Shown here piece after piece: positions 8,564 to 28,346 of a DNA stretch of 39,263 nt (the stretch's first letter is position 1; every line of letters begins with the position of its first letter). The notes beneath the pieces are model-generated. The model searched no databases. It was not told where the DNA came from and worked only from the letters and a program-made list of their open reading frames with translations. Position numbers and translations under genes: made by a program. The stretch comes from Frankia sp. AgB32. Lineage in GTDB: Bacteria > Actinomycetota > Actinomycetes > Frankiales > Frankiaceae. The stretch covers positions 1-39,263 of the forward strand of contig NZ_JALKFX010000082.1 of the NCBI RefSeq assembly GCF_023243045.1. The letters are read 5' to 3'.

Positions 8564-10395
8564 TGACCGGGCTGCCCGACCCCCTCGCCGCCAGGGTCCG
8601 GGAATGGCTCGCGGACGATCCCGACCCGGCGGACCGGTCCGAACTGACCCGGCTGTGCACGGCAGCCGTCGCCGACCCGGCGGCGCTCGCGGACCTCGAC
8701 GACCGCTTCCGCGCACCGCTTCGGTTCGGCACGGCCGGTCTGCGCGGACCGCTGCGCGCCGGTCCCGGGGGGATGAACACGGCGGTCGTGCGGTGCGCGG
8801 CCGCGGGACTGGCCGACTGGCTGCGGGCCGCGACGTCGTCGGACGGCGTGGCGCCAGGCGTGGCCCGCCCGCCCGTTCCGCCGCCGGACGCGGATCCGCC
8901 GACCGGTACCCCGCTCGTGGTCATCGGCTACGACGCGCGGCATCGCAGCGCGGCGTTCGCCGTGGACACGGCCCGGGTGCTCGCCGGCGCCGGGCTGCGG
9001 GCACTGCTGCTGCCCGCGCCGCTGCCGACCCCGGTGCTCGCCTTCGCCGTCCGCCGGCTGCGCGCCGACGCCGGGGTGATGGTCACCGCGAGCCACAATC
9101 CGGCCAGCGACAACGGCTACAAGGTCTACGTCGGCGGGGACGACTCCGACCCGGGCCGGGGCGCCCAGCTTGTCGCCCCCCTGGACGCCGACATCGAGCG
9201 GCGGATCGCCGCCGTCGGCCCCGCGATCGCGATCCCGCTCGCCGACTCCTGGCGCCGCCTCGACGACCAGATCGTCACGGACTACGTGCACGCCGCCGCC
9301 GCGGCGGTCCTCGACCTGATGCCGCCGCCGCCCGACCGGACGGGTGGCGCCGCGGATTCGACCAGCCCGCCGCCGAGCGCTCCCGTCGTCGCGTACACCG
9401 CGCTGCACGGAGTCGGCACGCGGGTGCTCAACGCGGTGTTCGCCGCCGCCGGGCTCACCGCGCCGACGCCCGTCGAGGAGCAGGCCGCGCCGGACCCCGA
9501 CTTCCCGACCGTCCGCTGGCCGAATCCCGAGGAGCCAGGTGCCATGGACCGGGCGTTGGCGCTCGGTGCCCGGATCGGCGCGGACCTCGTGCTGGCCACC
9601 GATCCGGATGCCGACCGGTGCGCGGTCGCCGTCGGCGGGCGGCTGCTGACCGGTGACGAGGTCGGGCTGCTCCTCGCCGACCAGGTCCTGCGCCGGCGGC
9701 CCGGTCCCGTGGCGACCACGCTGGTGAGCTCCCGCGGCCTGCGGGCGCTGGCACGACAGGCCGGGGTCGCCCACCGGGAGACCCTCACCGGCTTCAAATG
9801 GATCATGAGGGCGGACCCGGGACTCGTCTTCGGCTACGAGGAGGCCCTGGGCTACGCCCTCGTCCCCGAGCTCGTCCGGGACAAGGACGGCATCACCGCC
9901 GCGCTGGCCGTCACCCTTGTCGCGGCGGCGGCCCGACGCCACGGGAAGACCCTGACCGATCTTCTCGACGACCTGGCGGCCCGCATCGGCGTGCACACCA
10001 CCGGTGCGTACTCGGCCCGCCTCCCCGATGCCGCGGGGATCACGGCGGCGATGCGGCGGCTGCGCGCGACCCCGCCGGACCGCCTGGCGGGCCGACTGGT
10101 GACGGGCCGGCGCGACGTGCTCCGCGGGGAGACGGCCGGCAGGGTCGGCCCGGCCGAGGCGCTGCCCGTGTCCGACGTGCTCGTGCTCCTCGTCGACGAC
10201 GACCGGGTGATCTTCCGACCCAGCGGGACCGAGCCGAAGCTGAAGGTCTATCTGGAGGTGGTCGAGGGGGTCCCGGACGGGGCGCGGGCAGCGGGCGCGG
10301 CCGCCCGCGCCCGGGCCGAGCACCGGCTGTCCGAGCTCACCGCGGGCGTCCGCGACCTGCTGTCCCCGGCGGGACCGCCTCACATCTCGCCGTAG
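8563..10395 (+). CDS. pmmB: PmmB/PGM2-like alpha-D-phosphohexomutase
   Basis: A 610-residue mutase, the length of PGM2-type enzymes rather than of 450-residue ManB. It carries the active-site phosphoserine loop VTASHNPASDNGYKVY (about 175-190), the metal loop ATDPDADR (about 350), the sugar-binding GFKWI and EEALGY region, and the phosphate-binding RPSGTEPKLKVYLEV near the C terminus. It interconverts sugar 1- and 6- (or 5-) phosphates. Its start overlaps the PNP stop by one base and deoC and deoA lie nearby, while no deoB is seen. That makes a phosphopentomutase role likely, though phosphomannose or phosphoglucose activity is also possible. Its last 16 bases overlap the convergent upp gene. 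Confidence 0.88.
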   Translation: MTGLPDPLAARVREWLADDPDPADRSELTRLCTAAVADPAALADLDDRFRAPLRFGTAGLRGPLRAGPGGMNTAVVRCAAAGLADWLRAATSSDGVAPGVARPPVPPPDADPPTGTPLVVIGYDARHRSAAFAVDTARVLAGAGLRALLLPAPLPTPVLAFAVRRLRADAGVMVTASHNPASDNGYKVYVGGDDSDPGRGAQLVAPLDADIERRIAAVGPAIAIPLADSWRRLDDQIVTDYVHAAAAAVLDLMPPPPDRTGGAADSTSPPPSAPVVAYTALHGVGTRVLNAVFAAAGLTAPTPVEEQAAPDPDFPTVRWPNPEEPGAMDRALALGARIGADLVLATDPDADRCAVAVGGRLLTGDEVGLLLADQVLRRRPGPVATTLVSSRGLRALARQAGVAHRETLTGFKWIMRADPGLVFGYEEALGYALVPELVRDKDGITAALAVTLVAAAARRHGKTLTDLLDDLAARIGVHTTGAYSARLPDAAGITAAMRRLRATPPDRLAGRLVTGRRDVLRGETAGRVGPAEALPVSDVLVLLVDDDRVIFRPSGTEPKLKVYLEVVEGVPDGARAAGAAARARAEHRLSELTAGVRDLLSPAGPPHISP

Positions 10396-11018
10396 AGGCG
10401 GTCGCCGGCATCGCCGAGGCCGGGAACGATGTAGGCGATGTCGTTCAGTCGCTCGTCGACCGCCGCGGTGACCACCGTCAGCTCGGCCGCCGCCTCGGCC
10501 GGCAGCTCCGCCTCCAGCGCCGACAGGCCCTCGGGGGCGGCGACGATCGAGACGACGATGATCCCCCGGGCCCCCCGGCCGAGCAGCAGCCGCAGGCAGT
10601 GCAGCACCGAGCCACCCGTGGCGAGCATCGGGTCGAGCAGCAGCACCGGCCGGCCGGCGAGGTCCGCGGGGACCGCTTCGAGGTAGACGGTGGGGCGGTG
10701 GGTGGACTCGTCCCGGGCCAGCCCGATGAAGGCGGTGTGTGCCTCGGGGAGAAGCCCGAGCGCGGCGGGCAGCATGCCCAGGCCGGCCCGCAGCACGGGG
10801 GCGACCACCGGTTCGGCGGCGAGGCGCGCGCCGGTGGTCGTCGCCAGCGGCGTCGTGACGGTCACCGGCATGATCGGCAACGTCCGGGTCGCCTCGTAGA
10901 CCAGCATCGTCGCGAGGTCGTGCAGGACCGGCCGGAAGCGGGAGCGCGGGGTGCGCTCGTCGCGCAGCACGGTGAGCGACGAGGCGGCCAGGGGATGGTC
11001 CACGACGTGCAGCTGCAT
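10380..11018 (-). CDS. upp: uracil phosphoribosyltransferase
   Basis: A 212-residue UPRT that joins uracil and PRPP to give UMP, the pyrimidine salvage step. Motifs are ATRTLP and VVAPVLRAGLGM (base and phosphate contacts), the PRPP loop LLLDPMLATGGS (about 125-136) and the uracil-binding end YIVPGLGDAGDRLYGE. The ATG at 11018 is preceded by GGAG at good spacing. The 3' end overlaps the convergent mutase gene by 16 bases. The divergent deoC start is only 33-45 bases away, so the promoters must overlap the coding ends. Confidence 0.93.
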   Translation of the reverse strand: MQLHVVDHPLAASSLTVLRDERTPRSRFRPVLHDLATMLVYEATRTLPIMPVTVTTPLATTTGARLAAEPVVAPVLRAGLGMLPAALGLLPEAHTAFIGLARDESTHRPTVYLEAVPADLAGRPVLLLDPMLATGGSVLHCLRLLLGRGARGIIVVSIVAAPEGLSALEAELPAEAAAELTVVTAAVDERLNDIAYIVPGLGDAGDRLYGEM

Positions 11019-11051
11019 GGACTGACTCCTCGAACCCGGGGCTGGTCGGCA

Positions 11052-11822
11052 ATGATGGAAGATATGACATCCGTTCCCGCCGGACCCGACCGCTCCGCCG
11101 CGCGATCCGCGGACGGCTCCACGCCGGCGGCGGCCGGAGCGCTGCGCCGGGCGGACGTGGCCCGGATCATCGATCACACCCTGTTGGCGCCGGCGGCGAC
11201 GGGCGAGGAGGTGCTGTCGCTGTGCACGGAGGCGGCGAGGCTCGGCGTCGGCGCCGTGTGCGTCGCGCCGACCCACGTGTACCTGGCCGCGGCGAGCGCC
11301 CGGCGGGAGCGGCAGGACGAGCCCGCCTTCGCGGTGGCCTCGGTGATCGGCTTCCCGCACGGCAATCACCTTACCGTGATCAAGGCCGAGGAGGCCCGCC
11401 GGGCGTACGCGGACGGCGCCTCCGAGATAGACATGGTGATCGACATCGCGAACGCGATGGACGAGAACTGGCGGGCGATCGAGACCGAGATCGCCGAGGT
11501 CCGGCTGTCGCTGCCGCCGCACGTGATCCTCAAGGTGATCCTGGAGACGGCGCTGCTGCCCGACGCGAACATCATCGCGGCCTGTCGGGCGGCCGAGGCC
11601 GGTGGGGCCGAGTTCGTGAAGACCTCGACCGGCTTCCACGCGGCCGGTGGAGCCAGCGTGCGCGCCGTACGGGCGATGGCCGAGGCCGTCGGCGGGCGTC
11701 TGGGCATCAAGGCCTCCGGCGGCATCCGGACGGCCGAGCAGGCCACCGCCATGATCGAGGCCGGCGCGACACGGCTGGGTCTGTCCGCGTCGGCGCAGGT
11801 GCTGGCCGGCTTCCCCGTCTGA
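11052..11822 (+). CDS. deoC: deoxyribose-phosphate aldolase
   Basis: A class I aldolase of about 256 residues that splits 2-deoxyribose-5-phosphate into glyceraldehyde-3-phosphate and acetaldehyde. The TIM-barrel signatures are IIDHTLL, the strand with VGAVCVAP, IDMVIDI, the Schiff-base lysine in AEFVKTSTGF and the second lysine in GIKASGGIR. Three in-frame ATG codons (11052, 11055, 11064) are possible and no clear ribosome-binding site separates them; the first 30 residues are low complexity. It completes the deoxynucleoside degradation route with the neighbouring phosphorylases. The stop lies 17 bases from the convergent tag stop. Confidence 0.92.
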   Translation: MMEDMTSVPAGPDRSAARSADGSTPAAAGALRRADVARIIDHTLLAPAATGEEVLSLCTEAARLGVGAVCVAPTHVYLAAASARRERQDEPAFAVASVIGFPHGNHLTVIKAEEARRAYADGASEIDMVIDIANAMDENWRAIETEIAEVRLSLPPHVILKVILETALLPDANIIAACRAAEAGGAEFVKTSTGFHAAGGASVRAVRAMAEAVGGRLGIKASGGIRTAEQATAMIEAGATRLGLSASAQVLAGFPV

Positions 11823-11839
11823 GCCGACCGGCGCCGCCC

Positions 11840-12484
11840 TCACCCGACCGGCAGGGCGGGTACCCAGCAGTCGGCCAGATGGTCGTCGACCAGGCCGCAG
11901 GCCTGCATGAGCGCGTAGGCCGTGGTCGGACCGATGAAGACGAACCCGGCCGCGCGCAGCGACTTCGCCAGCGCCACCGACGCCGGGGGCGTCGCCGGCA
12001 CGTCCGCGAGCGTCACCGGACGCGGCCCGGGCGCGGGCTGGTGGGCCCAGATGACGTCGGTCAGCGGACGGTCGAGGGCCAGCATGGCCCGCGCGTTGAC
12101 GATGGTGGCCTCGATCTTGCGCCGGTTACGCACGATGCCGGCGTCGCCGAGCAGCCGATCGACGTCGGCGGGACCGAACGCCGCGACGACGGCCGGGTCG
12201 AAGCCGGCGAAGGCGGCCCGGAACGCCGGCCGCTTGCGCAGGATCGTCAGCCAGGACAGCCCGGACTGGAAGGCCTCCAGGGTCACCCGCTCGAACAGCC
12301 CCACCGGATCCCGGACGGGCCGTCCCCACTCCTGGTCGTGGTACTCGACGTACTCCGGGGCGGACAGACCCCAGGGGCAGCGCGCCCGCCCGTCCGCGCC
12401 CACCACGGCCCCGGCCCCGGTCGCCGGTACCGCGGGCCGCGCCGGAGCAGGGGCGCCGTCCTCGTTCACCGCGGTCGCGCTCAT
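11840..12484 (-). CDS. tag: DNA-3-methyladenine glycosylase I
   Basis: A 214-residue Tag-type glycosylase that excises 3-methyladenine from alkylated DNA. Family marks are [45 protein letters not shown], the aromatic pocket around [18 protein letters not shown], and the zinc ligands (Cys in RCPW, plus His and Cys in DDHLADCW). The ATG overlaps the add stop (ATGA), so it is the last gene of the cdd-deoA-add-tag unit. A repair gene coupled to nucleoside salvage is a mild oddity. The N-terminal 30 Ala/Pro-rich residues are an extension. Confidence 0.92.
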
Positions 12485-13584
12485 CGGGCGAGTTCCTCCT
12501 GGACGTACGGGGCGTAGCCCGGCTTGATGACGTTGTTGATGAGGTCGAGCCGCTCGTCGAACGGGAGGAACGCCGACTTCATCGCGTTGAGCGTCAGCCA
12601 CCGGATGTCGGCCCACCCGTAGCCGTGGACGTCGACGAGCGTGGCGAACTCGCTGGCCAGGGACACCCCGCTCATCAGCCGGTTGTCGGTGTTCACCGTC
12701 ACGCGGAAGTGCAGGGCCCGCAGCAGGGCGATCGGATGACGTTCGATGCTCGGCGCCGCGCCGGTGTGCACGTTGGAGGTCGGGCACATCTCCAGCGGCA
12801 CCCGCACATCGCGCACGTAGTTGGCGAGGTCGCCGAGCGTGGCCTTGCCGTCCGGATCGACCGTGATGTCGTCCATGATGCGCACGCCGTGGCCGAGCCG
12901 GTCGGCGTTGCACCACTGGACGGCCTCCCAGATCGACGGCAGCCCGAACGCCTCCCCGGCGTGAATCGTGAAGTGGCCGTTGGCCCGCTGGATGTACTGG
13001 AAGGCGTCCAGGTGCCGGGTCGGCGGGTTGCCCGCCTCGGCACCGGCGATGTCGAAGCCCACCACGCCGGCGTCGCGCCAGCGGACCGCGAGCTCCGCGA
13101 TCTCCAGCGAGCGGGCCTGGTGGCGCATGGCCGTCAGCAGCGCGCGAATGCGCAGCGACGTGCCCGCGCAGCCGGCCCGGAACCCATCGAGCACGGCCTC
13201 GACCACCCCATCCAGCGACAGGCCGCGCCCGACGTGCAGCTCCGGGGCGAACCGCACCTCGGCGTAGACGACCCCGTCGGCCGCGAGATCCTCCGCGCAC
13301 TCGCGGGCGACCCGCCGGATCGCCTCCGCCGTCTGCATGACGGCGACGGTGTGGCTGAACGTCTCCAGGTAGCGGACCAGCGAGCCGCTGTGCGCGCCGC
13401 CGCGGAACCAGGTGCTCAGCTCGTGCACGTCGGTGGTCGGCAGGTCCCGGTAGCCACCCTCGTCGGCCAGCTCGACCACCGTGGCCGGGCGCAGGCCGCC
13501 GTCGAGATGGTCGTGCAGCAGGACCTTCGGCACCCGGCGGATCTGCTCGATCGTGATCGGGCCGGGCGAGGCGTCGTTCGTCAT
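12481..13584 (-). CDS. add: adenosine deaminase
   Basis: A 367-residue zinc hydrolase converting (deoxy)adenosine to (deoxy)inosine. The metal and catalytic motifs are HDHLDGG (HxH), [10 protein letters not shown], the HAGE motif in [24 protein letters not shown] and the Asp in [10 protein letters not shown]. The ATG is preceded by GGAGGG. It lies 96 bases after deoA and overlaps tag by 4 bases, so it forms part of the leftward salvage operon. It supplies inosine to the purine nucleoside phosphorylase encoded nearby. Confidence 0.93.
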
Positions 13585-13680
13585 CGTGTCCCTCCGTCTC
13601 CCGCCCGACGGTAGGCCACGGGTCCGACAGAACCGCGTCGACGACCCCGCCGGTCCGCGGCGGCGGTCGGTCCGCCCTGT

Positions 13681-14985
13681 TCAGGCCCCGATGCGCTCGA
13701 GGACGAGCGGGCTGGCCGGCGCCGGCCGCGGACCGATCTCCACTGCGTCGGCGAGCGCCGCGCGCGCCCGGGGAAGCGTGGCCGGGTCGTCGGTGTGCAG
13801 TTCCACCAGCGGCTCGCCCGCCTGGACGGGATCGCCGATCCCCGCCAGCCAGCGCACCCCGGCCGTCGCCGAGACCGCGTCCTCCTTGCGGGCGCGCCCC
13901 GCGCCCAGCCGCCACGCCGCGACGCCGACGCCCCGAGCGTCCAGGCGGGTCAGGAACCCGGACGTCGGTGCGGGAAGGGTCTCGACCGTCGGCGCCAGCG
14001 GCAGCTCCGCGTCCGGATCGCCGCCCTGGGCCGCGACCATGGCCCTCCACACCGGATACGCACCACCTGCCGCCAGCACCTCGGCCGGATCCCGCAGGTC
14101 AGCCGGCCGGCCCGCGGCCTCGGCGGCGAGCTCGACCATGACCCGGGCGAGCGCGACCGTGACCTCCACCAGGTCCGCCGGGCCGCCGCCACGCAGCGTG
14201 TCGACCGCCTCGGCGACCTCCAGGGCGTTGCCGGCGGTCCGCCCCAGCGGGTGATCCATCGCGGTCAGCAGCGCCGCGGTCCGCACGCCCGCCGCCGTGC
14301 CGAGGCCGACCATGGTCCGGGCCAGCTCGCGGGCGGCGTCCGGGGAACTCAGGAACGCCCCGGCGCCGACCTTCACGTCCAGGACCAGTGCGGACGTGCC
14401 CTCGGCGATCTTCTTGCTCATGATGGACGAAGCGATCAACGGGATCGACTCGACCGTGCCGGTCACGTCACGCAGCGCGTACAGCCGCCGGTCGGCGGGC
14501 GCGAGGCCCGTGCCCGCGGCGCAGATCACCGCGCCGACGTCGGCGAGCTGGCGCCGCATCCGGTCCAGCGGCAGGTCGGCGCGCCAGCCCGGGATCGACT
14601 CCATCTTGTCCAGTGTTCCGCCGGTGTGCCCGAGACCGCGCCCGGACAGCTGCGGGACAGCGACCCCGCAGGCCGCGACGAGCGGCACCAGTACCAGGGA
14701 CACCTTGTCGCCGACTCCGCCGGTGGAGTGCTTGTCGACGGTCGGGCGGCCGACGTCGGCGAGATCGAGCCGCTCCCCGCTGTCGATCATTGCGGTGGTC
14801 CACCGGGCCAGTTCGTCCGGGGACATGCCGCGCCACACGACCGCCATCAGATAGGCGGACATCTGCTCGTCGGCGACCCGCCCGCGGGTGTAGGCGTCGA
14901 CCAGCCAGTCGATGGCCGCGGCAGGCAGGGACCGGCCGTCCCGCTTGGCCCTGATCAGGTCGACGACGTCGAACTCGTCGCTCAT
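13681..14985 (-). CDS. deoA: thymidine phosphorylase
   Basis: A 434-residue pyrimidine nucleoside phosphorylase. The N-terminal helical domain (VVDLIRAKRDGRSL) is followed by the signature phosphate-binding loops KHSTGGVGDKVSL and SGRGLGHTGGTLDKMESIPG, a middle SSIMSKKIAEG segment, and the C-terminal PYNP domain (DAVSATAGVRWL..GEPLVELHTDDP). It yields thymine and deoxyribose-1-phosphate, which a mutase and DeoC can break down. Its ATG overlaps the cdd stop by 4 bases (ATGA), so the two are translationally coupled. Confidence 0.94.
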   Translation of the reverse strand: MSDEFDVVDLIRAKRDGRSLPAAAIDWLVDAYTRGRVADEQMSAYLMAVVWRGMSPDELARWTTAMIDSGERLDLADVGRPTVDKHSTGGVGDKVSLVLVPLVAACGVAVPQLSGRGLGHTGGTLDKMESIPGWRADLPLDRMRRQLADVGAVICAAGTGLAPADRRLYALRDVTGTVESIPLIASSIMSKKIAEGTSALVLDVKVGAGAFLSSPDAARELARTMVGLGTAAGVRTAALLTAMDHPLGRTAGNALEVAEAVDTLRGGGPADLVEVTVALARVMVELAAEAAGRPADLRDPAEVLAAGGAYPVWRAMVAAQGGDPDAELPLAPTVETLPAPTSGFLTRLDARGVGVAAWRLGAGRARKEDAVSATAGVRWLAGIGDPVQAGEPLVELHTDDPATLPRARAALADAVEIGPRPAPASPLVLERIGA

Positions 14986-21060: not shown

Positions 21061-21423
21061 TCAGCCGGCGCGGCGGGGCATCAGATCCTGCGCGCGCAGG
21101 ACCCTGAGCAGATCCTGGGGTTCGATCAGTAGCCGGCCGGTCGGCGGCCGGGTCGGCTCGGACTCGTCGTGTTCGAGGGTGGCGGGCAGCTGGTAGAAGT
21201 CGGCGAGGTGCTGGGCGAGCTCCCCGAGCCGACGCTCGTTCTCCCTGCTGCGCAGGAGGTTTCGCTCGTCCACCTCGGTGTCCTGCGCGCCCTCCCGGGC
21301 CAGCCGGTGGGTGCGGCACAGACCGTCCGGATCCTTGGCGATCGCTCGCTTGCCACAGCGGTGCGCGACGTAGCCCCGGCCGCCGCCCATCACCGTCGCG
21401 ATACAACGATCACTGTTGAACAT
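21061..21423 (-). CDS. small Cys/His protein of unknown function
   Basis: A 120-residue protein. Cys7, Cys23, Cys36 and His39 (CRTH) near the N terminus could form a zinc site. The middle is strongly charged (RNLLRSRENERRLGELAQHLADFYQL, likely a helix), and the end is LLRVLRAQDLMPRR. The RxC..GxCxTH pattern resembles small zinc-binding proteins of actinobacteria, but I do not recognise a named family. It starts with ATG 21423. It stands alone between the kinases and the helicase and is convergent to the kinase gene. Confidence 0.6.
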   Translation of the reverse strand: MFNSDRCIATVMGGGRGYVAHRCGKRAIAKDPDGLCRTHRLAREGAQDTEVDERNLLRSRENERRLGELAQHLADFYQLPATLEHDESEPTRPPTGRLLIEPQDLLRVLRAQDLMPRRAG

Positions 21424-21696: not shown

Positions 21697-23898
21697 TCAG
21701 CCGGCGTCGGTGGCGAGGGCGAATGGCAGCACGGTGGATGCGCCCGCCTGGCGCAGCAGCCTGGCAGCGACCGTCATCGTCCAGCCGGTGACGATGCGGT
21801 CGTCGACGAGCAGGACCGGACCGTCGACCGCGGCCAGCGCGACCCGCAGTTCCTCGGACACCGTGAACGCATCCCAGAGACCGGCGAGGCGGTGCGCGCT
21901 GTTGTGGACCTCCCCGGCGGACGGCCCGCCGCGGACCCGCTCGAGCTGCCCGAGCAGCGGCAGGCGGCCGATCGCGGCGATCCGCTCGGCGAGGCTCACG
22001 ACGAGCTGCGGCCGGCCGCGGGAGGCGATCGCCACGACCGCCGCCGGTCGGCGCTCCCACTTCCAGCCGGCGAGCGTGGCCACGACGGCCTCGACCAGAT
22101 CGGCCGGCAGCGGTCCGTCCGCGCCGCCGGGCGCGAACACCGGCCGCAGCCGACTGCCCCAGCCCACCTCCGCGAGCCGGGCCAGGACCCGGCCGGGATC
22201 GGCGGCGACCCCCGCCGGGATCCGCCCGGACAGGGTGATTCCCAGCCGGCTCATGCCCGTCGGCCACATCCGGCGCGACTCGACGACGACCCCCGGCCGC
22301 ATGAGCTCCGCCCTGGCCCGCGCCCGCGCGTCGGCGGAGACGTCGGAGGACCACTGCCGCCCGGTGCAGCGGTCACACCGCCCGCAGGCGGCGGCGTCGG
22401 GGTCGTCGAGCTGGCGGCGCAGGAACTCCATCCGGCAGCCAGGGGTGACAAGGTAGTCGAGCATCGCCTGTTGTTCGCGCTCGCGCGCGGCTGCCACCCG
22501 CCGGTAGCGGGGTTCGTCGTAGGACCAGGCGAGACCGGTCGCGGTCCAGCCGCCCCGGACCCGCCGGACCGCGCCGTCGGTGTCGAGGACCTTGAGCATC
22601 TGGTCGAGCCGGCCGGGACCGATGTCGACGGCGGTCAGCAGCGCCTGGGTCGACGTCGGTCGACTGGTCTCGGCAAGCTCGGCCAGCACGGTGCGGACCA
22701 CCGCCTCGGGCGGGAAGGACGTGTCGGCGAAGTACCGCCAGATGTCCCGGTCCTCCGTGGCCGGCAGCAGGATGACCTCCGCGGCATCGACCGCCCGCCC
22801 GGCCCGGCCGATCTGCTGGTAGTACGCCACCGGCGACGCGGGCGCGCCGAGATGGACGACGAAACCGAGATCCGGCTTGTCGAAACCCATCCCGAGGGCG
22901 CTGGTCGCGACGAGGGCCTTGATCCGGTTCGCCAGCAGATCCTCCTCCGCGGCGAGCCGTTCGGCGGCTTCCGTTCCACCGTGGTAGCAGGCCACCGCGA
23001 GACCCTCACCGCGCAGGAAGACGGTCAGCTCCTCCGCGGCGGCCTTGGTCAGCGTGTAGACGATGCCTGAGCCCGACAGCTGCCGCAGCCGTTCGGCGAT
23101 CCAGCCGAACCGGTCCTCGGCCCGGGGCAGCGCGACGACGGCGAGACGCAGGCTTGCCCGGTCGAGCGACCCACGCAGCACCAGCGCGGCATTGTCCTCG
23201 GCGCCGGTGCCGAGCTGCTCGCTCACGTCCGCCACCACGCGCTGGTTGGCCGTGGCGGTGGTGGCGAGGACCGGAACACCGGACCGCAGGCCGGCAATGA
23301 TGGTGCGCAGCCGGCGGTAGTCGGGCCGGAAGTCGTGGCCCCAGTCGGAGATGCAGTGCGCCTCGTCGACGACGAGCAGGCCGGTCCTGGCCGCGAGCTC
23401 GGGCAGGTAGTCATCGCGGAACTGCGGGTTGTTCAGCCGCTCCGGCCCGATGAGGAGAACATCGAGCTCGTCGGCGCGCAGCGCCGCGTAGACCTCGTCC
23501 CACTCGGTGACGTTGCCGGAGTGGATCTCGCCGGCGCGGATGCCCAGCCGCCCCGCCGCCGCGGCCTGGTTGCGCATGAGGGCGAGCAGCGGCGAGACGA
23601 TGACCGTCGGCCCGACTCGCCCACCCTCGCCGACCGCGGCCCGCAGCAGCACGGTGGCGAGGAAGTACACCGCCGACTTGCCCCAGCCGGTGCGCTGCAC
23701 GAGCAGCACCCGACGACGGTGGCTGACCAGCGCCTCGATCGCCCGCCACTGGTCGTCCCGCAGCGCGGCCGCCGGGCCGGCGAGCTCACGCAGCAGCTCC
23801 TCCGCCCGCGCCCGCAGGGCCCCGGGCCCCCCGTCGGCAGCAGGTGCCGCTGTGGCCAGGCCCACCGGCCCGGTCGTGGTCAATCCGTCCGCCGCCAT
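21697..23898 (-). CDS. recQ: RecQ-type DNA helicase with C-terminal phosphoribosyltransferase-like domain
   Basis: A 733-residue protein. The helicase core has QRTGWGKSAVYF (Walker A, about 68-79), DEAHCISDWGHDFRPDYRRL (178 onward), TATAN (motif III), and QQIGRAGR in the second RecA domain. A cysteine cluster (CRMEFL..CGRCDRC) forms the RecQ zinc site. The last 150 residues are not a standard HRDC domain: LVVSLAERI and VLLVDDRIVTGWTMT (695-709) match the PRPP-binding motif of ComF-like phosphoribosyltransferases. It probably unwinds DNA in repair; the role of the added domain is unknown. ATG 23898 is chosen because the N terminus before it is antisense-like. No clear ribosome-binding site is present. 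Confidence 0.88.
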   Translation of the reverse strand: MAADGLTTTGPVGLATAAPAADGGPGALRARAEELLRELAGPAAALRDDQWRAIEALVSHRRRVLLVQRTGWGKSAVYFLATVLLRAAVGEGGRVGPTVIVSPLLALMRNQAAAAGRLGIRAGEIHSGNVTEWDEVYAALRADELDVLLIGPERLNNPQFRDDYLPELAARTGLLVVDEAHCISDWGHDFRPDYRRLRTIIAGLRSGVPVLATTATANQRVVADVSEQLGTGAEDNAALVLRGSLDRASLRLAVVALPRAEDRFGWIAERLRQLSGSGIVYTLTKAAAEELTVFLRGEGLAVACYHGGTEAAERLAAEEDLLANRIKALVATSALGMGFDKPDLGFVVHLGAPASPVAYYQQIGRAGRAVDAAEVILLPATEDRDIWRYFADTSFPPEAVVRTVLAELAETSRPTSTQALLTAVDIGPGRLDQMLKVLDTDGAVRRVRGGWTATGLAWSYDEPRYRRVAAAREREQQAMLDYLVTPGCRMEFLRRQLDDPDAAACGRCDRCTGRQWSSDVSADARARARAELMRPGVVVESRRMWPTGMSRLGITLSGRIPAGVAADPGRVLARLAEVGWGSRLRPVFAPGGADGPLPADLVEAVVATLAGWKWERRPAAVVAIASRGRPQLVVSLAERIAAIGRLPLLGQLERVRGGPSAGEVHNSAHRLAGLWDAFTVSEELRVALAAVDGPVLLVDDRIVTGWTMTVAARLLRQAGASTVLPFALATDAG

Positions 23899-24463: not shown

Positions 24464-25177
24464 ATGTCCAACCCCCTACCTCCGTCCCACGCCGCTCGGC
24501 TCCGCCGAAGGTTGAGCGCCGAACGCCTCGCCCCCTACGAGCAGGCATGCGACGGCGACGTTGTCCGCGCGATCGCGCTCTACGGCTGGAACAGCGCTGT
24601 CAGCGCCGCCTTCTACGAGATTCTGGGGTTATTCGAAGTTGCGCTTCGCAACGCGCTTCATGACCAGCTCACAGCGTGGCACGCCCGCCAGCGTCGATCT
24701 GGGGAGTGGTGGGACGCCCCAACCGGGACTCTCGAAACGCGCGCACGCCAGGACATAGCGGACGCCAGGTCCAGGATCCGACGCAACAACAAGATCGCGA
24801 TCCCTGGCCGGGTCGTCGCCGAGCTGAACTTCGGTTTCTGGAGATATCTGCTATCCCGTCGCTACGAGGCGACTCTCTGGACACCCGCGCTCCGCCACGC
24901 CTTCCCGCGGCTTCGCCCCGCCCGCCGCGCGACGGTCTACGAACCGGTCAACAGACTCGTCAACCTCCGGAACCGCATCGCTCACCACGAGCCGATCCAC
25001 AACCGTCCGCTGAAGCAGACGCACGCCGACCTGCTACGGGTGGCCGACTACCTGGACGCCGACGTCCATGACTGGATTATGAGCCACAGTCGCGTTCCCG
25101 GTCTTCTGTCCACCAAGCCCGCTTCTGACGTACCCGCGCCACGCCAATCACCCGACCAGTACCTAGGTCATAAGTGA
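24464..25177 (+). CDS. Abi-like HEPN protein (Abi_2 family)
   Basis: A 237-residue helical protein with the Abi_2/AbiD-F-like pattern: LSAERLAPYEQACDGD at the start, ALRNALHDQLTAWH, then ELNFGFWRYLLSRRYE, and the HEPN RNase motif R169-x4-H174 in NLRNRIAHHEPI. Such proteins act in abortive infection or as toxins, probably cleaving RNA. It lies alone with no obvious antitoxin beside it, divergent from the SCO4848 gene. Its last four codons (LGHK and stop) lie in the repeat at 25160, so the 3' end is part of the repeated element. A decayed copy of its start and end exists at 27543. Confidence 0.75.
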   Translation: MSNPLPPSHAARLRRRLSAERLAPYEQACDGDVVRAIALYGWNSAVSAAFYEILGLFEVALRNALHDQLTAWHARQRRSGEWWDAPTGTLETRARQDIADARSRIRRNNKIAIPGRVVAELNFGFWRYLLSRRYEATLWTPALRHAFPRLRPARRATVYEPVNRLVNLRNRIAHHEPIHNRPLKQTHADLLRVADYLDADVHDWIMSHSRVPGLLSTKPASDVPAPRQSPDQYLGHK

Positions 25178-27203: not shown

Positions 27204-27374
27204 TCAGGTGAGCAACGTCCCAAGCCTCTCCGCGTCGATGCCCGCCTGACGCAGGACGGAGGCGAGGGCGCCTGTCGCCAACTCCCGACGAAGCGGGACG
27301 ATCACGACCCGGGCGTTCTCCTTGTGCTCCTTGTGCCGCAGCTTGCAGTGCGAGCCGCTCTTCGACAGAGTCAC
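27204..27374 (-). pseudogene. hicA remnant fused to the SCO4848 start
   Basis: An open frame of 56 residues starts with GTG 27374 and the SCO4848 codons VTLSK, then continues in frame into GSHCKLRHKEHKENARVV and the rest of the HicA C terminus. The HicA N-terminal third is missing. A 9-base tandem duplication adds residues around KEHKEN compared with the copy at 25293. It keeps the active-site His, but the missing first helix and strand make toxin activity doubtful. The join of two coding starts shows recombination at the repeat. Confidence 0.6.
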
Positions 27375-27645
27375 CCCACCAGCCTCGCACCAGCCACCAG
27401 CCGTGGCCTCCGCGTGGGGGCGCGGGTTCGGACACGTTGATCGCCATAAGGTGGACGGACAGAAAAACCCCGGGGGCTTGCCGACCAGGCGGTAGAGGCC
27501 ATCCGCGGCGTCCATCTCCACGTTTAGAAGGCCGGTAGCCCGATGTCGAACGCCGTGACTCCGTCGCATGCCCTCGCGGTCCCGCTCCGGCGCAGGCTCA
27601 GCGCCGAACGCCTCGATCCGTACGAACAAGCCTGCGACCATGACC
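27361..27645. repeat. partial duplicate of the SCO4848-abi divergent region
   Basis: This stretch matches about 24265-24552: the first SCO4848 codons, the divergent intergenic region (shared GGGCGCG, GACACGTTGATCGCCATAAG, CCCCGGGGGCTTGCCG, GCGGTAGAGGCCATCC) and the first 30 codons of abi. A small deletion and scattered base changes show that it is not recent. The copy ends where the abi remnant jumps to the abi 3' end. Confidence 0.75.
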
Positions 27646-27821
27646 GGGACCAGGGCCACAAGCGCATGTTCTACAAATTCGGCCAGCTGGCCCACGTCCA
27701 GACACCCACCGCGACCAGGAACGGGTGGCGGGCCGATGTCCTGGCCCGCCACCCGCCGAAAGAATCTGATCAGAGGACCGTCAGGTTCACGTTCAGAACC
27801 TGTCCGCCGCCCGGCCGGTAA
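27543..27821 (+). pseudogene. abi remnant with large internal deletion
   Basis: The frame opens like the intact Abi protein (LRRRLSAERLDPYEQACD), then skips about 195 residues to the terminal DQGHK and reads through the next repeat and into sequence antisense to the secreted-protein gene. The HEPN motif is lost, so no activity is expected. It shows that an SCO4848-abi-repeat unit once stood here and collapsed. Confidence 0.65.
27650..27722 (-). repeat. SCO4848 5'-end repeat, copy E (truncated)
   Basis: It matches the repeat from the abi tail through about 17 SCO4848 codons and stops at ACCAGGAAC (27714-27722), where unrelated sequence begins. The minus-strand reading again ends in WPNL and TAG, with Ile changed to Ser two residues before WPNL. 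It is the rightmost copy and marks the array boundary. Confidence 0.75.
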
Positions 27822-28138
27822 AAGGGGAAGCTCGTCGAGGGATATGTTCTCTTCCCGAGAATATCGCACCGCACCTGAGCAGTCGCGATGCCGGGGACCT
27901 TGGGGTTCCCGAAGACCACCGAGAACCGACCACCCACGCCGGTGGGCGCGCCGTGCGACTCTCCACCAGCGGTGATCCGAATTGATTCGGCGGAGCCGGC
28001 CTGACACCGGACGGTGCCGGTCACTGTCAGCGGATTGTTTGTCGTCCCCGCCATCGCCGGTGCCATGGGAACAACGGCCAACGTCACACCCGTCCCCACT
28101 ACCAGACCCAGAGCCTTGAGTTTCGAAAGTCCTCGCAA
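27770..28138 (-). CDS. secreted protein of unknown function
   Basis: A 122-residue protein with a Sec signal peptide: basic start (RGLSKLK), hydrophobic core ALGLVVGTGVTLAVVPM and a likely cut after AMA. The mature part is about 90 residues, rich in Gly and Val with two Cys (VRCQ.., VRCDI) that may form a disulfide, and has beta-sandwich-like strands. I do not recognise the family. TTG 28138 is preferred because GGAGGT lies 6 bases upstream; an in-frame GTG at 28156 is the alternative. It sits just outside the cassette array. Confidence 0.65.
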   Translation of the reverse strand: MRGLSKLKALGLVVGTGVTLAVVPMAPAMAGTTNNPLTVTGTVRCQAGSAESIRITAGGESHGAPTGVGGRFSVVFGNPKVPGIATAQVRCDILGKRTYPSTSFPFYRPGGGQVLNVNLTVL

Positions 28139-28346
28139 GACGCACCTCCAACGCACGCATCGGAAAGTTGCCGGCGTGGGGTTCGGTGTACCCGGGCAGC
28201 AGAATCATCACGCACCGAAGCCGCGGGGCCATCCGTGGAACTCCGGCTCACCGGACCGCCGCACCACGGCACAGGAAAAGTCCGACATTGCGTCAGATCT
28301 CCCCCATCGGGTCGGCTTCGGTGGGCAGCCGCGGCAGGCCGGACCG

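What the first reader, a model, noticed from the sequence alone, without database searches (positions are those of the whole stretch)
21697..23898. RecQ-type helicase with a phosphoribosyltransferase-like C terminus
The last 150 residues end with VLLVDDRIVTGWTMT and a following helix, matching the PRPP loop of type I phosphoribosyltransferases such as ComF, in place of HRDC. A nucleotide-sugar-binding module on a repair helicase suggests sensing of PRPP or nucleotide pools, or a base-related reaction at unwound DNA.
Basis: partly seen in the sequence, partly recalled or inferred. Interest (0 to 1): 0.6.

Follow-up and report, generated by a model that had tools for sequence, protein, structure and literature searches.

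The report
RqlH: known RecQ-like helicase–phosphoribosyltransferase fusion
The gene encodes a DNA-unwinding enzyme joined to a PRPP-binding domain; this fusion, called RqlH or PsyrT, was described years ago and is common in actinomycetes, so the find is correct but not new.

Summary
Window 21697-23898 (-) encodes 733 aa: a RecQ-type helicase core, a four-Cys zinc module, no detectable RQC or HRDC, and a C-terminal type I phosphoribosyltransferase (PRT) fold with an intact PRPP loop (DDRIVTGWT, residues 699-707). AlphaFold2 models residues 512-733 at mean pLDDT 94.5; the best solved matches are H. pylori ComF and the PRT toxin ShosT with PRPP-Mg. But the family is known: PADLOC PsyrT matches 30-731 at 697 bits. 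RqlH was named in Mycobacterium smegmatis in 2012, and in E. coli its PRT domain was shown in 2015 to be needed for genotoxicity (PMC4670107). The same paper reports that 99.6% of the Gram-positive strains in its set carry RqlH without the DprA-like antitoxin RqlI/PsyrA. That agrees with what I find: no PsyrA in the window or in 104 other actinomycete loci as far as their flanks reach. At least 114 of 197 sampled genomes of the class have a match spanning both halves. The PRT part is under purifying selection, so it is probably functional; its chemistry is unknown. Already known, low interest, apart from how solo RqlH is kept harmless.

The parts
21697..23898 (-). rqlH (PsyrT-type) gene, 733 aa
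   Evidence: ORF; PADLOC PsyrT PDLC03928 697 bits over residues 30-731
23227..23757 (-). DEAD helicase domain, residues 48-224
   Evidence: PF00270 73.4 bits
23674..23688 (-). Walker A, GWGKS, residues 71-75
   Evidence: each residue in at least 80 of 81 aligned rows
22792..23079 (-). Helicase_C domain, residues 274-369
   Evidence: PF00271 63.5 bits
22363..22482 (-). RecQ zinc-binding module, residues 473-512, with Cys 488, 505, 508, 511
   Evidence: PF16124 19.2 bits, under its cut-off of 25; the four Cys in 81 of 81 rows
21700..22365 (-). C-terminal region, residues 512-733: hood-like part (512-577, my division) plus PRT core (578-733)
   Evidence: AlphaFold2 mean pLDDT 94.5; ComF, ShosT and APRT folds
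21778..21804 (-). PRPP loop DDRIVTGWT, residues 699-707
   Evidence: pattern kept in 79 of 81 rows; profile aligns it with the loop of PRPP synthetases

Best explanation
The gene is an actinomycete rqlH (PADLOC's PsyrT family): a RecQ-type DNA helicase with a ComF/ShosT-type phosphoribosyltransferase domain where canonical RecQ has HRDC. Shown here: the domain order, intact helicase motifs, intact PRPP loop, predicted PRT fold, absence of the PsyrA antitoxin near the gene, and purifying selection on both halves. Inferred: the helicase half unwinds DNA 3'-5' as reported for M. smegmatis RqlH, and the PRT domain binds Mg-PRPP or nucleotides. When unrestrained, the PRT domain may harm DNA or nucleotide pools, as RqlH does in E. 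coli and as ShosT is reported to do. In solo actinomycete proteins the restraint is most likely in cis, by the helicase half, so that PRT activity is released or aimed only when the helicase is engaged on unusual DNA (repair or anti-phage use). Identity about 0.97; the cis-restraint mechanism about 0.35; the confidence given covers the whole statement.
For: PsyrT model 697 bits over residues 30-731; the next best models, of DpdF, reach 308. Model with pLDDT 94.5 whose best solved matches are ComF and ShosT-PRPP. PRPP loop kept in 79 of 81 rows and zinc Cys in 81 of 81. dN/dS against three Frankia homologues 0.16, 0.27, 0.30 for residues 512-733 and 0.13, 0.19, 0.20 for 28-511. A PsyrA profile hits nothing in the window, 80 actinomycete loci and 24 loci of relatives; it hits the three plasmid loci it was built from (by construction) and, independently, the Sinorhizobium locus. 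Published: loop mutant D663A had no notable effect on growth, SOS or filamentation and only modest effects on viable counts, and helicase mutants K49A and D148A gave more SOS and filamentation, from which the authors suggest that RqlI and the helicase domain keep the PRT domain in check (PMC4670107 section 11, read whole). A review reports ShosT as phosphoribosyl transferase and pyrophosphatase that disturbs purine metabolism (passage in PMC12593503).
Against: I read of no demonstrated enzymatic activity of an RqlH PRT domain. In M. smegmatis the PRT domain is dispensable for ATPase and helicase activity (as cited in PMC4670107). The E. coli PRT domain alone was not toxic; the authors call the regulation complex, note that helicase mutants are often dominant-negative, and saw lowered titres when RqlI was combined with the double mutant. 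ComFC binds PRPP and nucleotides without a demonstrated reaction (passages of PMC9005727), so the domain may only bind. PF00156 stays under its cut-off and Foldseek TM-scores are modest. I saw no test of toxicity for any solo actinomycete RqlH.
Confidence: 0.6

Rival explanations
1. The PRT domain is a catalytically idle sensor: it binds PRPP or nucleotides (as B. subtilis PurR and ComFC do) and adjusts helicase loading or activity to nucleotide supply.
For: ComFC binds PRPP and NMPs, and its authors leave open PRTase activity or a regulatory role (passages). B. subtilis PurR structures are among the fold matches. The loop is kept in proteins with no antitoxin nearby.
Against: In E. coli a PRPP-loop aspartate is needed for genotoxicity, which fits an activity better than silent sensing, although a binding defect would give the same result.
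Confidence: 0.25
2. It is the toxin of a PsyrTA toxin-antitoxin or anti-phage pair whose antitoxin lies elsewhere in the genome, for example the DprA homologue on contig C267.
For: PsyrT match; a DprA homologue exists in the genome (PF02481 222 bits). Pairs with a DprA-like gene beside rqlH exist on E. coli, Nostoc and Acinetobacter plasmids.
Against: The genome's best PsyrA-model hit is that DprA, at 77.6 bits, against 577 and 470 bits for two annotated partners. In 197 genomes of the class the best PsyrA hit is 253 bits, in G034, whose best PsyrT match covers the helicase part only; the next is 124 bits. The search scores only candidates of a first look, at most 8 per genome there.
Confidence: 0.07
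3. A degenerate remnant: a former toxin that lost its antitoxin and whose PRT domain is decaying.
For: The PRT core is less conserved than the helicase part (median identity to the window 54% against 68%) and has higher dN/dS. One plasmid homologue, Tsukamurella L093, has a degenerate loop, six rows have Arg for the loop Gly and one lacks the second Asp.
Against: dN/dS 0.16-0.30 over residues 512-733; loop kept in 79 of 81 rows.
Confidence: 0.05

Closest known systems
RqlH of Mycobacterium smegmatis (MSMEG_5935) and ExPEC F11
   Same: Same architecture: RecQ-like helicase plus C-terminal PRT domain (PMC4670107). M. smegmatis RqlH likewise comes without RqlI.
   Different: I did not compare the window with either protein directly; an E. 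coli plasmid relative is about 41% identical (L091). The window protein's biochemistry is untested.
PsyrT of the PsyrTA toxin-antitoxin/defence system
   Same: PADLOC PsyrT model matches residues 30-731 at 697 bits.
   Different: No PsyrA near the gene and none at partner-level score in the genome.
ShosT (PRT toxin of ShosTA)
   Same: PRT fold, entry with PRPP-Mg, Z 11.2, 3.5 A over 169 residues. ShosTA and RqlHI both have DprA-like antitoxins (PMC9122126, passage), and two PsyrA proteins hit the ShosA model.
   Different: 10% identity. I did not test ShosT for a helicase domain.
ComF/ComFC competence protein
   Same: Top VIA-align match: Z 12.4, rmsd 7.9 over 178 residues. Same loop pattern; ComFC has DDIITTGTTL.
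   Different: TIGR00201 comF scores 19.6 bits against a cut-off of 233.55.
Canonical RecQ (RQC + HRDC)
   Same: Helicase core and a zinc module.
   Different: No RQC or HRDC match. A RecQ with both sits elsewhere in this genome (L104).

Membership tests
RqlH / PsyrT helicase family | Full-length similarity to PsyrT | tested here: met
   697 bits, residues 30-731 on model 6-684 of 689
RqlH / PsyrT helicase family | Intact SF2 RecQ helicase motifs (Walker A, DEAH) | tested here: met
   GWGKS 71-75 and DEAH 178-181, each residue in at least 80 of 81 rows
RqlH / PsyrT helicase family | Four-Cys zinc module after the helicase core | tested here: met
   Cys 488, 505, 508, 511 in 81 of 81 rows; PF16124 itself under its cut-off
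RqlH / PsyrT helicase family | C-terminal PRT domain with PRPP loop | tested here: met
RqlH / PsyrT helicase family | ATP-dependent 3'-5' unwinding | not testable with these tools
   Needs purified protein
PsyrTA / RqlHI two-gene system | DprA-like PsyrA/RqlI gene next to the helicase gene | tested here: not met
   No hit in the window. Genome-wide best 77.6 bits, a DprA on another contig; two annotated partners score 577 and 470 bits
PsyrTA / RqlHI two-gene system | Toxicity neutralised by the partner | not testable with these tools
   Needs expression tests
Dpd system helicase DpdF | NCBIfam DpdF over its curated cut-off | tested here: not met
   139.4 against 550 bits. PADLOC DpdF models score up to 308 bits on the helicase part and one, PDLC02866, 238 bits on residues 490-730, all below PsyrT's 697
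Type I phosphoribosyltransferase | PRT fold | tested here: met
   The 50 VIA-align rows shown have Z 8.9-12.4 and, by title, are PRTs or PRPP-related proteins apart from two uninformative titles, 7f06 and 4paw. Foldseek alone: 6 matches at E<=0.001 with TM-scores by query of 0.33-0.45
Type I phosphoribosyltransferase | PRPP loop DDxxx[TS]Gx[TS] | tested here: met
   DDRIVTGWT, residues 699-707
Type I phosphoribosyltransferase | Pfam PF00156 over its curated cut-off | tested here: not met
   20.5 bits whole protein, 23.6 bits domain alone, 24 bits in the genome search; cut-off 26.3
Type I phosphoribosyltransferase | PPi loop and flexible loop | tested here: inconclusive
   Conserved S626, P630, G644, R645, N666, S667, A668, R670 precede the PRPP loop, but no residue-level superposition was made
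Type I phosphoribosyltransferase | Transferase activity | not testable with these tools
   Needs an assay
ComF family (TIGR00201) | Score over the curated cut-off | tested here: not met
   19.6 against 233.55 bits
Canonical RecQ (TIGR01389) | RQC and HRDC domains; score over the cut-off | tested here: not met
   No RQC or HRDC match; 259.5 against 640.2 bits

The most novel reading that the evidence does not exclude
In actinomycetes RqlH is a one-gene genome-integrity sensor: the helicase half holds a potentially genotoxic PRT domain silent and releases it on phage or damaged DNA, making the DprA-like antitoxin unnecessary. The PRT domain then acts on nucleotides or on DNA bases with PRPP.
Probability: 0.15. 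Interest if true: 0.55.

Novelty: already known. Interest (0 to 1): 0.15.

Why it matters
The fusion itself is described and named. What remains open in what I read is the chemistry of the PRT domain and how so many actinomycetes (at least 114 of 197 sampled genomes of the class) carry the toxin-like protein without its antitoxin beside it. An actinomycete RqlH is a suitable single-gene model for that question.

Tried and rejected
Dedicated neighbour gene: an all-against-all comparison of flanking ORFs of 80 loci plus the window gave no cluster present in more than 31 of 81. Some cluster representatives I recognised by eye only: Obg- and ProB-like (representative from Saccharothrix), NadD-like (Amycolatopsis), RNase HII-like (Streptomyces); many clusters look like antisense artefacts of GC-rich DNA. 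I did not check the taxonomy of each cluster.

The small downstream gene at 21061-21423 was considered as a substitute partner. Of the 24 same-family genomes among 40 relatives (own genome included; family unnamed, taken as Frankiaceae from named close homologues), 12 have both it and rqlH, 6 have rqlH without it (one of these, G203, has rqlH cut by a contig end), 6 have neither and none has it alone (rqlH threshold 1e-150). In G056 it lies about 23 kb away and in G206 on another contig. Shared regional synteny explains this as well, so I claim no partner.

Phage carriage: 21 phage records match P0001, none over 80% of it; the 15 listed end at residue 511 or before, so they match the helicase part only. 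Plasmids: 243 records match, 11 over at least 80% of the query.

Tree (quick method, 53 rows: 32 of 80 loci, 12 of 24 relatives, 6 plasmid loci, 2 RecQ outgroups, window): the window sits in a 10-row clade of Frankia and same-family rows (SH-aLRT 100); two other such rows, L014 and L130, fall elsewhere. The four antitoxin-paired plasmid proteins and one haloarchaeal protein form a clade (100). The root is unreliable because of very long outgroup branches, so I conclude nothing on loss or gain of the antitoxin.

Unusual Trp in the loop: in five PRT relatives of this genome where a loop pattern was found the residue is L, R, G, G and S (three of the eight loci gave no pattern), so Trp is no sign of inactivity.

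Papers: the 2012 RqlH paper (10.1093/nar/gks046) is not held; I saw only its title in reference lists and what others say of it. The ShosTA paper (Pu et al. 2025) is known only through a review passage; my ShosT searches did not list it. Among the 15 of 105 papers listed for RqlH, Streptomyces and RecQ I saw no title on a solo actinomycete RqlH; I read only that listing.

Rows dropped and limits of counts: the 80 loci are the best of at least 585 relatives. Alignment A1 holds 57 of them plus the window. In the loop count of 111 rows, 101 are canonical, 6 have Arg for Gly, 1 lacks the second Asp and 3 have no match (L132 and L133 end at contig ends; L093 is degenerate); some rows look like the same species from two collections and were not merged. 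For the PsyrA profile search, 76 of 80 loci have at least 1.5 kb downstream and 74 at least 1.5 kb upstream; flanks of the 24 relatives are about 1.5 kb or less. The count of at least 114 of 197 comes from 127 genomes whose best places I copied out (cut-offs start <=70, end >=630); 9 of the 127 stop short of the PRT end and 4 start late. Of four of those nine I read longer frames with an intact loop in fetched loci (G181, G088, G172, G152). Six of the 114 show one stop codon inside the match, whose place I did not check. The 139 of 197 includes ordinary RecQ.

Full report
What is there. Window 21697-23898 on the minus strand encodes 733 residues from an ATG, inside a 756-codon frame with an upstream TTG. 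Pfam finds DEAD (residues 48-224) and Helicase_C (274-369) well over their cut-offs, and the RecQ zinc-binding family and PF00156 phosphoribosyltransferase below theirs. Walker A (71-75) and DEAH (178-181) are kept in at least 80 of 81 aligned rows and four Cys (488, 505, 508, 511) in 81 of 81, the rows being the window and the 80 best of at least 585 relatives. No RQC or HRDC match appears. The same genome holds a canonical RecQ with both domains (L104) and a third RecQ-like helicase (L103). So this is an additional RecQ paralogue. The genome is probably a Frankia: two named Frankia loci match at 79-81% identity (L009, L079); the handles themselves are unnamed.

The C terminus. Residues 699-707 read DDRIVTGWT. 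The pattern DDxxx[TS]Gx[TS] is intact in 79 of 81 rows; the exceptions are L011 (Gly to Arg) and L086 (second Asp to Leu). Its chance expectation in a protein of this composition is about 0.002. AlphaFold2 on residues 512-733 with 57 homologues gives mean pLDDT 94.5 and pTM 0.89, with the DD (188-189 in model numbering) in the last half of a strand (184-191) before a helix (195-206). Foldseek has 6 matches at E<=0.001, PRTs or relatives including H. pylori ComF (and 7f06, whose title says only '1144'), with modest TM-scores of 0.33-0.45 by query length. VIA-align 2 ranks ComF first (Z 12.4, but rmsd 7.9 over 178 residues), then ShosT with PRPP-Mg (Z 11.2, 3.5 A over 169) and ShosT with phosphate, then adenine PRTs. 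By sequence, a profile of the C terminus reaches PRPP synthetases through the loop (best E 0.00026). The observation and its fold assignment hold.

What is known. PADLOC's PsyrT model matches residues 30-731 at 697 bits; DpdF models come next with at most 308 bits, and NCBIfam DpdF stays far under its cut-off (139 of 550). PsyrT is an RqlH orthologue, toxic without PsyrA (PMC4670107, passage). RqlH was named in M. smegmatis by Ordonez, Unciuleac and Shuman in 2012 as defining a clade of RecQ-like 3'-5' helicases (title seen in reference lists; paper not held). Russell and Mulvey 2015 describe the C-terminal PRT domain and show in E. coli that deleting it abolishes growth inhibition and SOS induction, that D663A leaves only modest effects on viable counts, and that helicase mutants increase SOS and filamentation; they caution that the regulation is complex (section 11, read whole). 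In their set 99.6% of Gram-positive bacteria encode RqlH alone (section 15, read whole).

Tests made here. In 197 genomes of the class, at least 114 carry a PsyrT match spanning helicase and PRT parts (six of these with one stop inside the match, not followed up). A PsyrA search of 197 genomes gives 253 bits in G034, whose best PsyrT match covers the helicase part only, then 124 bits and less; two annotated partners score 577 and 470 bits. These searches score only candidates of a first look. A profile of three plasmid PsyrA proteins finds nothing in the window, in 80 actinomycete loci (76 with at least 1.5 kb downstream) or in 24 loci of relatives with short flanks; it finds the three loci it was built from and, independently, the Sinorhizobium locus, but not the Tsukamurella and haloarchaeal plasmid loci. 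The genome's best PsyrA-model hit is a DprA on another contig (77.6 bits), with one fragment-level hit besides (24.5 bits). Selection: Nei-Gojobori dN/dS against three Frankia homologues is 0.16, 0.27 and 0.30 for residues 512-733 and 0.13, 0.19 and 0.20 for 28-511; median identity to the window is 68% for the helicase part and 54% for the PRT core. The PRT domain evolves somewhat faster but is kept. In a quick tree the gene sits among Frankia and same-family proteins.

Reading. Identity is secure. The most likely mechanism is a DNA helicase that carries a PRPP/nucleotide-binding and perhaps catalytic domain, restrained in cis in species without RqlI. The E. coli mutants suggest a restraining role of the helicase half, and ShosT, the nearest solved toxin fold, is reported by a review to be a phosphoribosyl transferase and pyrophosphatase that disturbs purine metabolism (passage). 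Cis restraint in actinomycetes is inference only. A pure sensor role, as for PurR or possibly ComFC, is not excluded.

Verdict. Correct observation, known family, low novelty. The remaining value is the open question of the PRT chemistry and of the antitoxin-free form. One side observation may merit a look: the loop glycine is replaced by arginine in six of 111 rows (L011, L127, L131, Nostoc L092, haloarchaeon L094, Sinorhizobium L134), in proteins with and without the antitoxin nearby.

Noticed in passing
L011, L127, L131, L092, L094, L134 (C termini): The otherwise nearly invariant PRPP-loop glycine is Arg ([TS]RW[TS]) in 6 of 111 RqlH rows, both with and without the PsyrA partner nearby; possibly a distinct functional state of the domain.
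   Followed up: partly
window 21061-21423 (-): 120-aa Cys/His-containing ORF downstream of rqlH, no Pfam, NCBIfam, PADLOC or PHROG hit. Found in 12 of 40 genomes (own included), all of the same family and all with rqlH.
   Followed up: partly
window 24464-25177 (+): Abi-like protein (PADLOC PD-T4-5 45.5 bits; Pfam Abi_2 20.7 bits, under its cut-off of 25.6); no tblastn hit at 1e-6 in 104 rqlH loci as far as their flanks reach.
   Followed up: partly
window 27204-28232 (-): 342-aa ORF with a HicA-toxin-like domain at its C terminus (30.8 bits, cut-off 27).
   Followed up: no
window 10380-11843 (-): Uracil phosphoribosyltransferase in about the last 210 residues of a 487-aa frame; an N-terminal extension is possible, or the start is simply further in.
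   Followed up: no
window 11840-14050 (-): 3-methyladenine glycosylase domain at residues 560-729 of a 736-aa frame; no Pfam hit at 1e-4 in the first 559 residues.
   Followed up: no
L094 2914-4995: A haloarchaeal plasmid carries a PsyrT-type protein (817 bits) with no PsyrA hit within 3 kb.
   Followed up: no
L134 5022-6415: The PsyrA-like gene beside rqlH on a Sinorhizobium pSymB record matches in two overlapping frames, so it is probably broken there.
   Followed up: no
L093 2914-5022: Tsukamurella plasmid RqlH with a degenerate PRPP loop, directly upstream of yajC-secD-secF.
   Followed up: no
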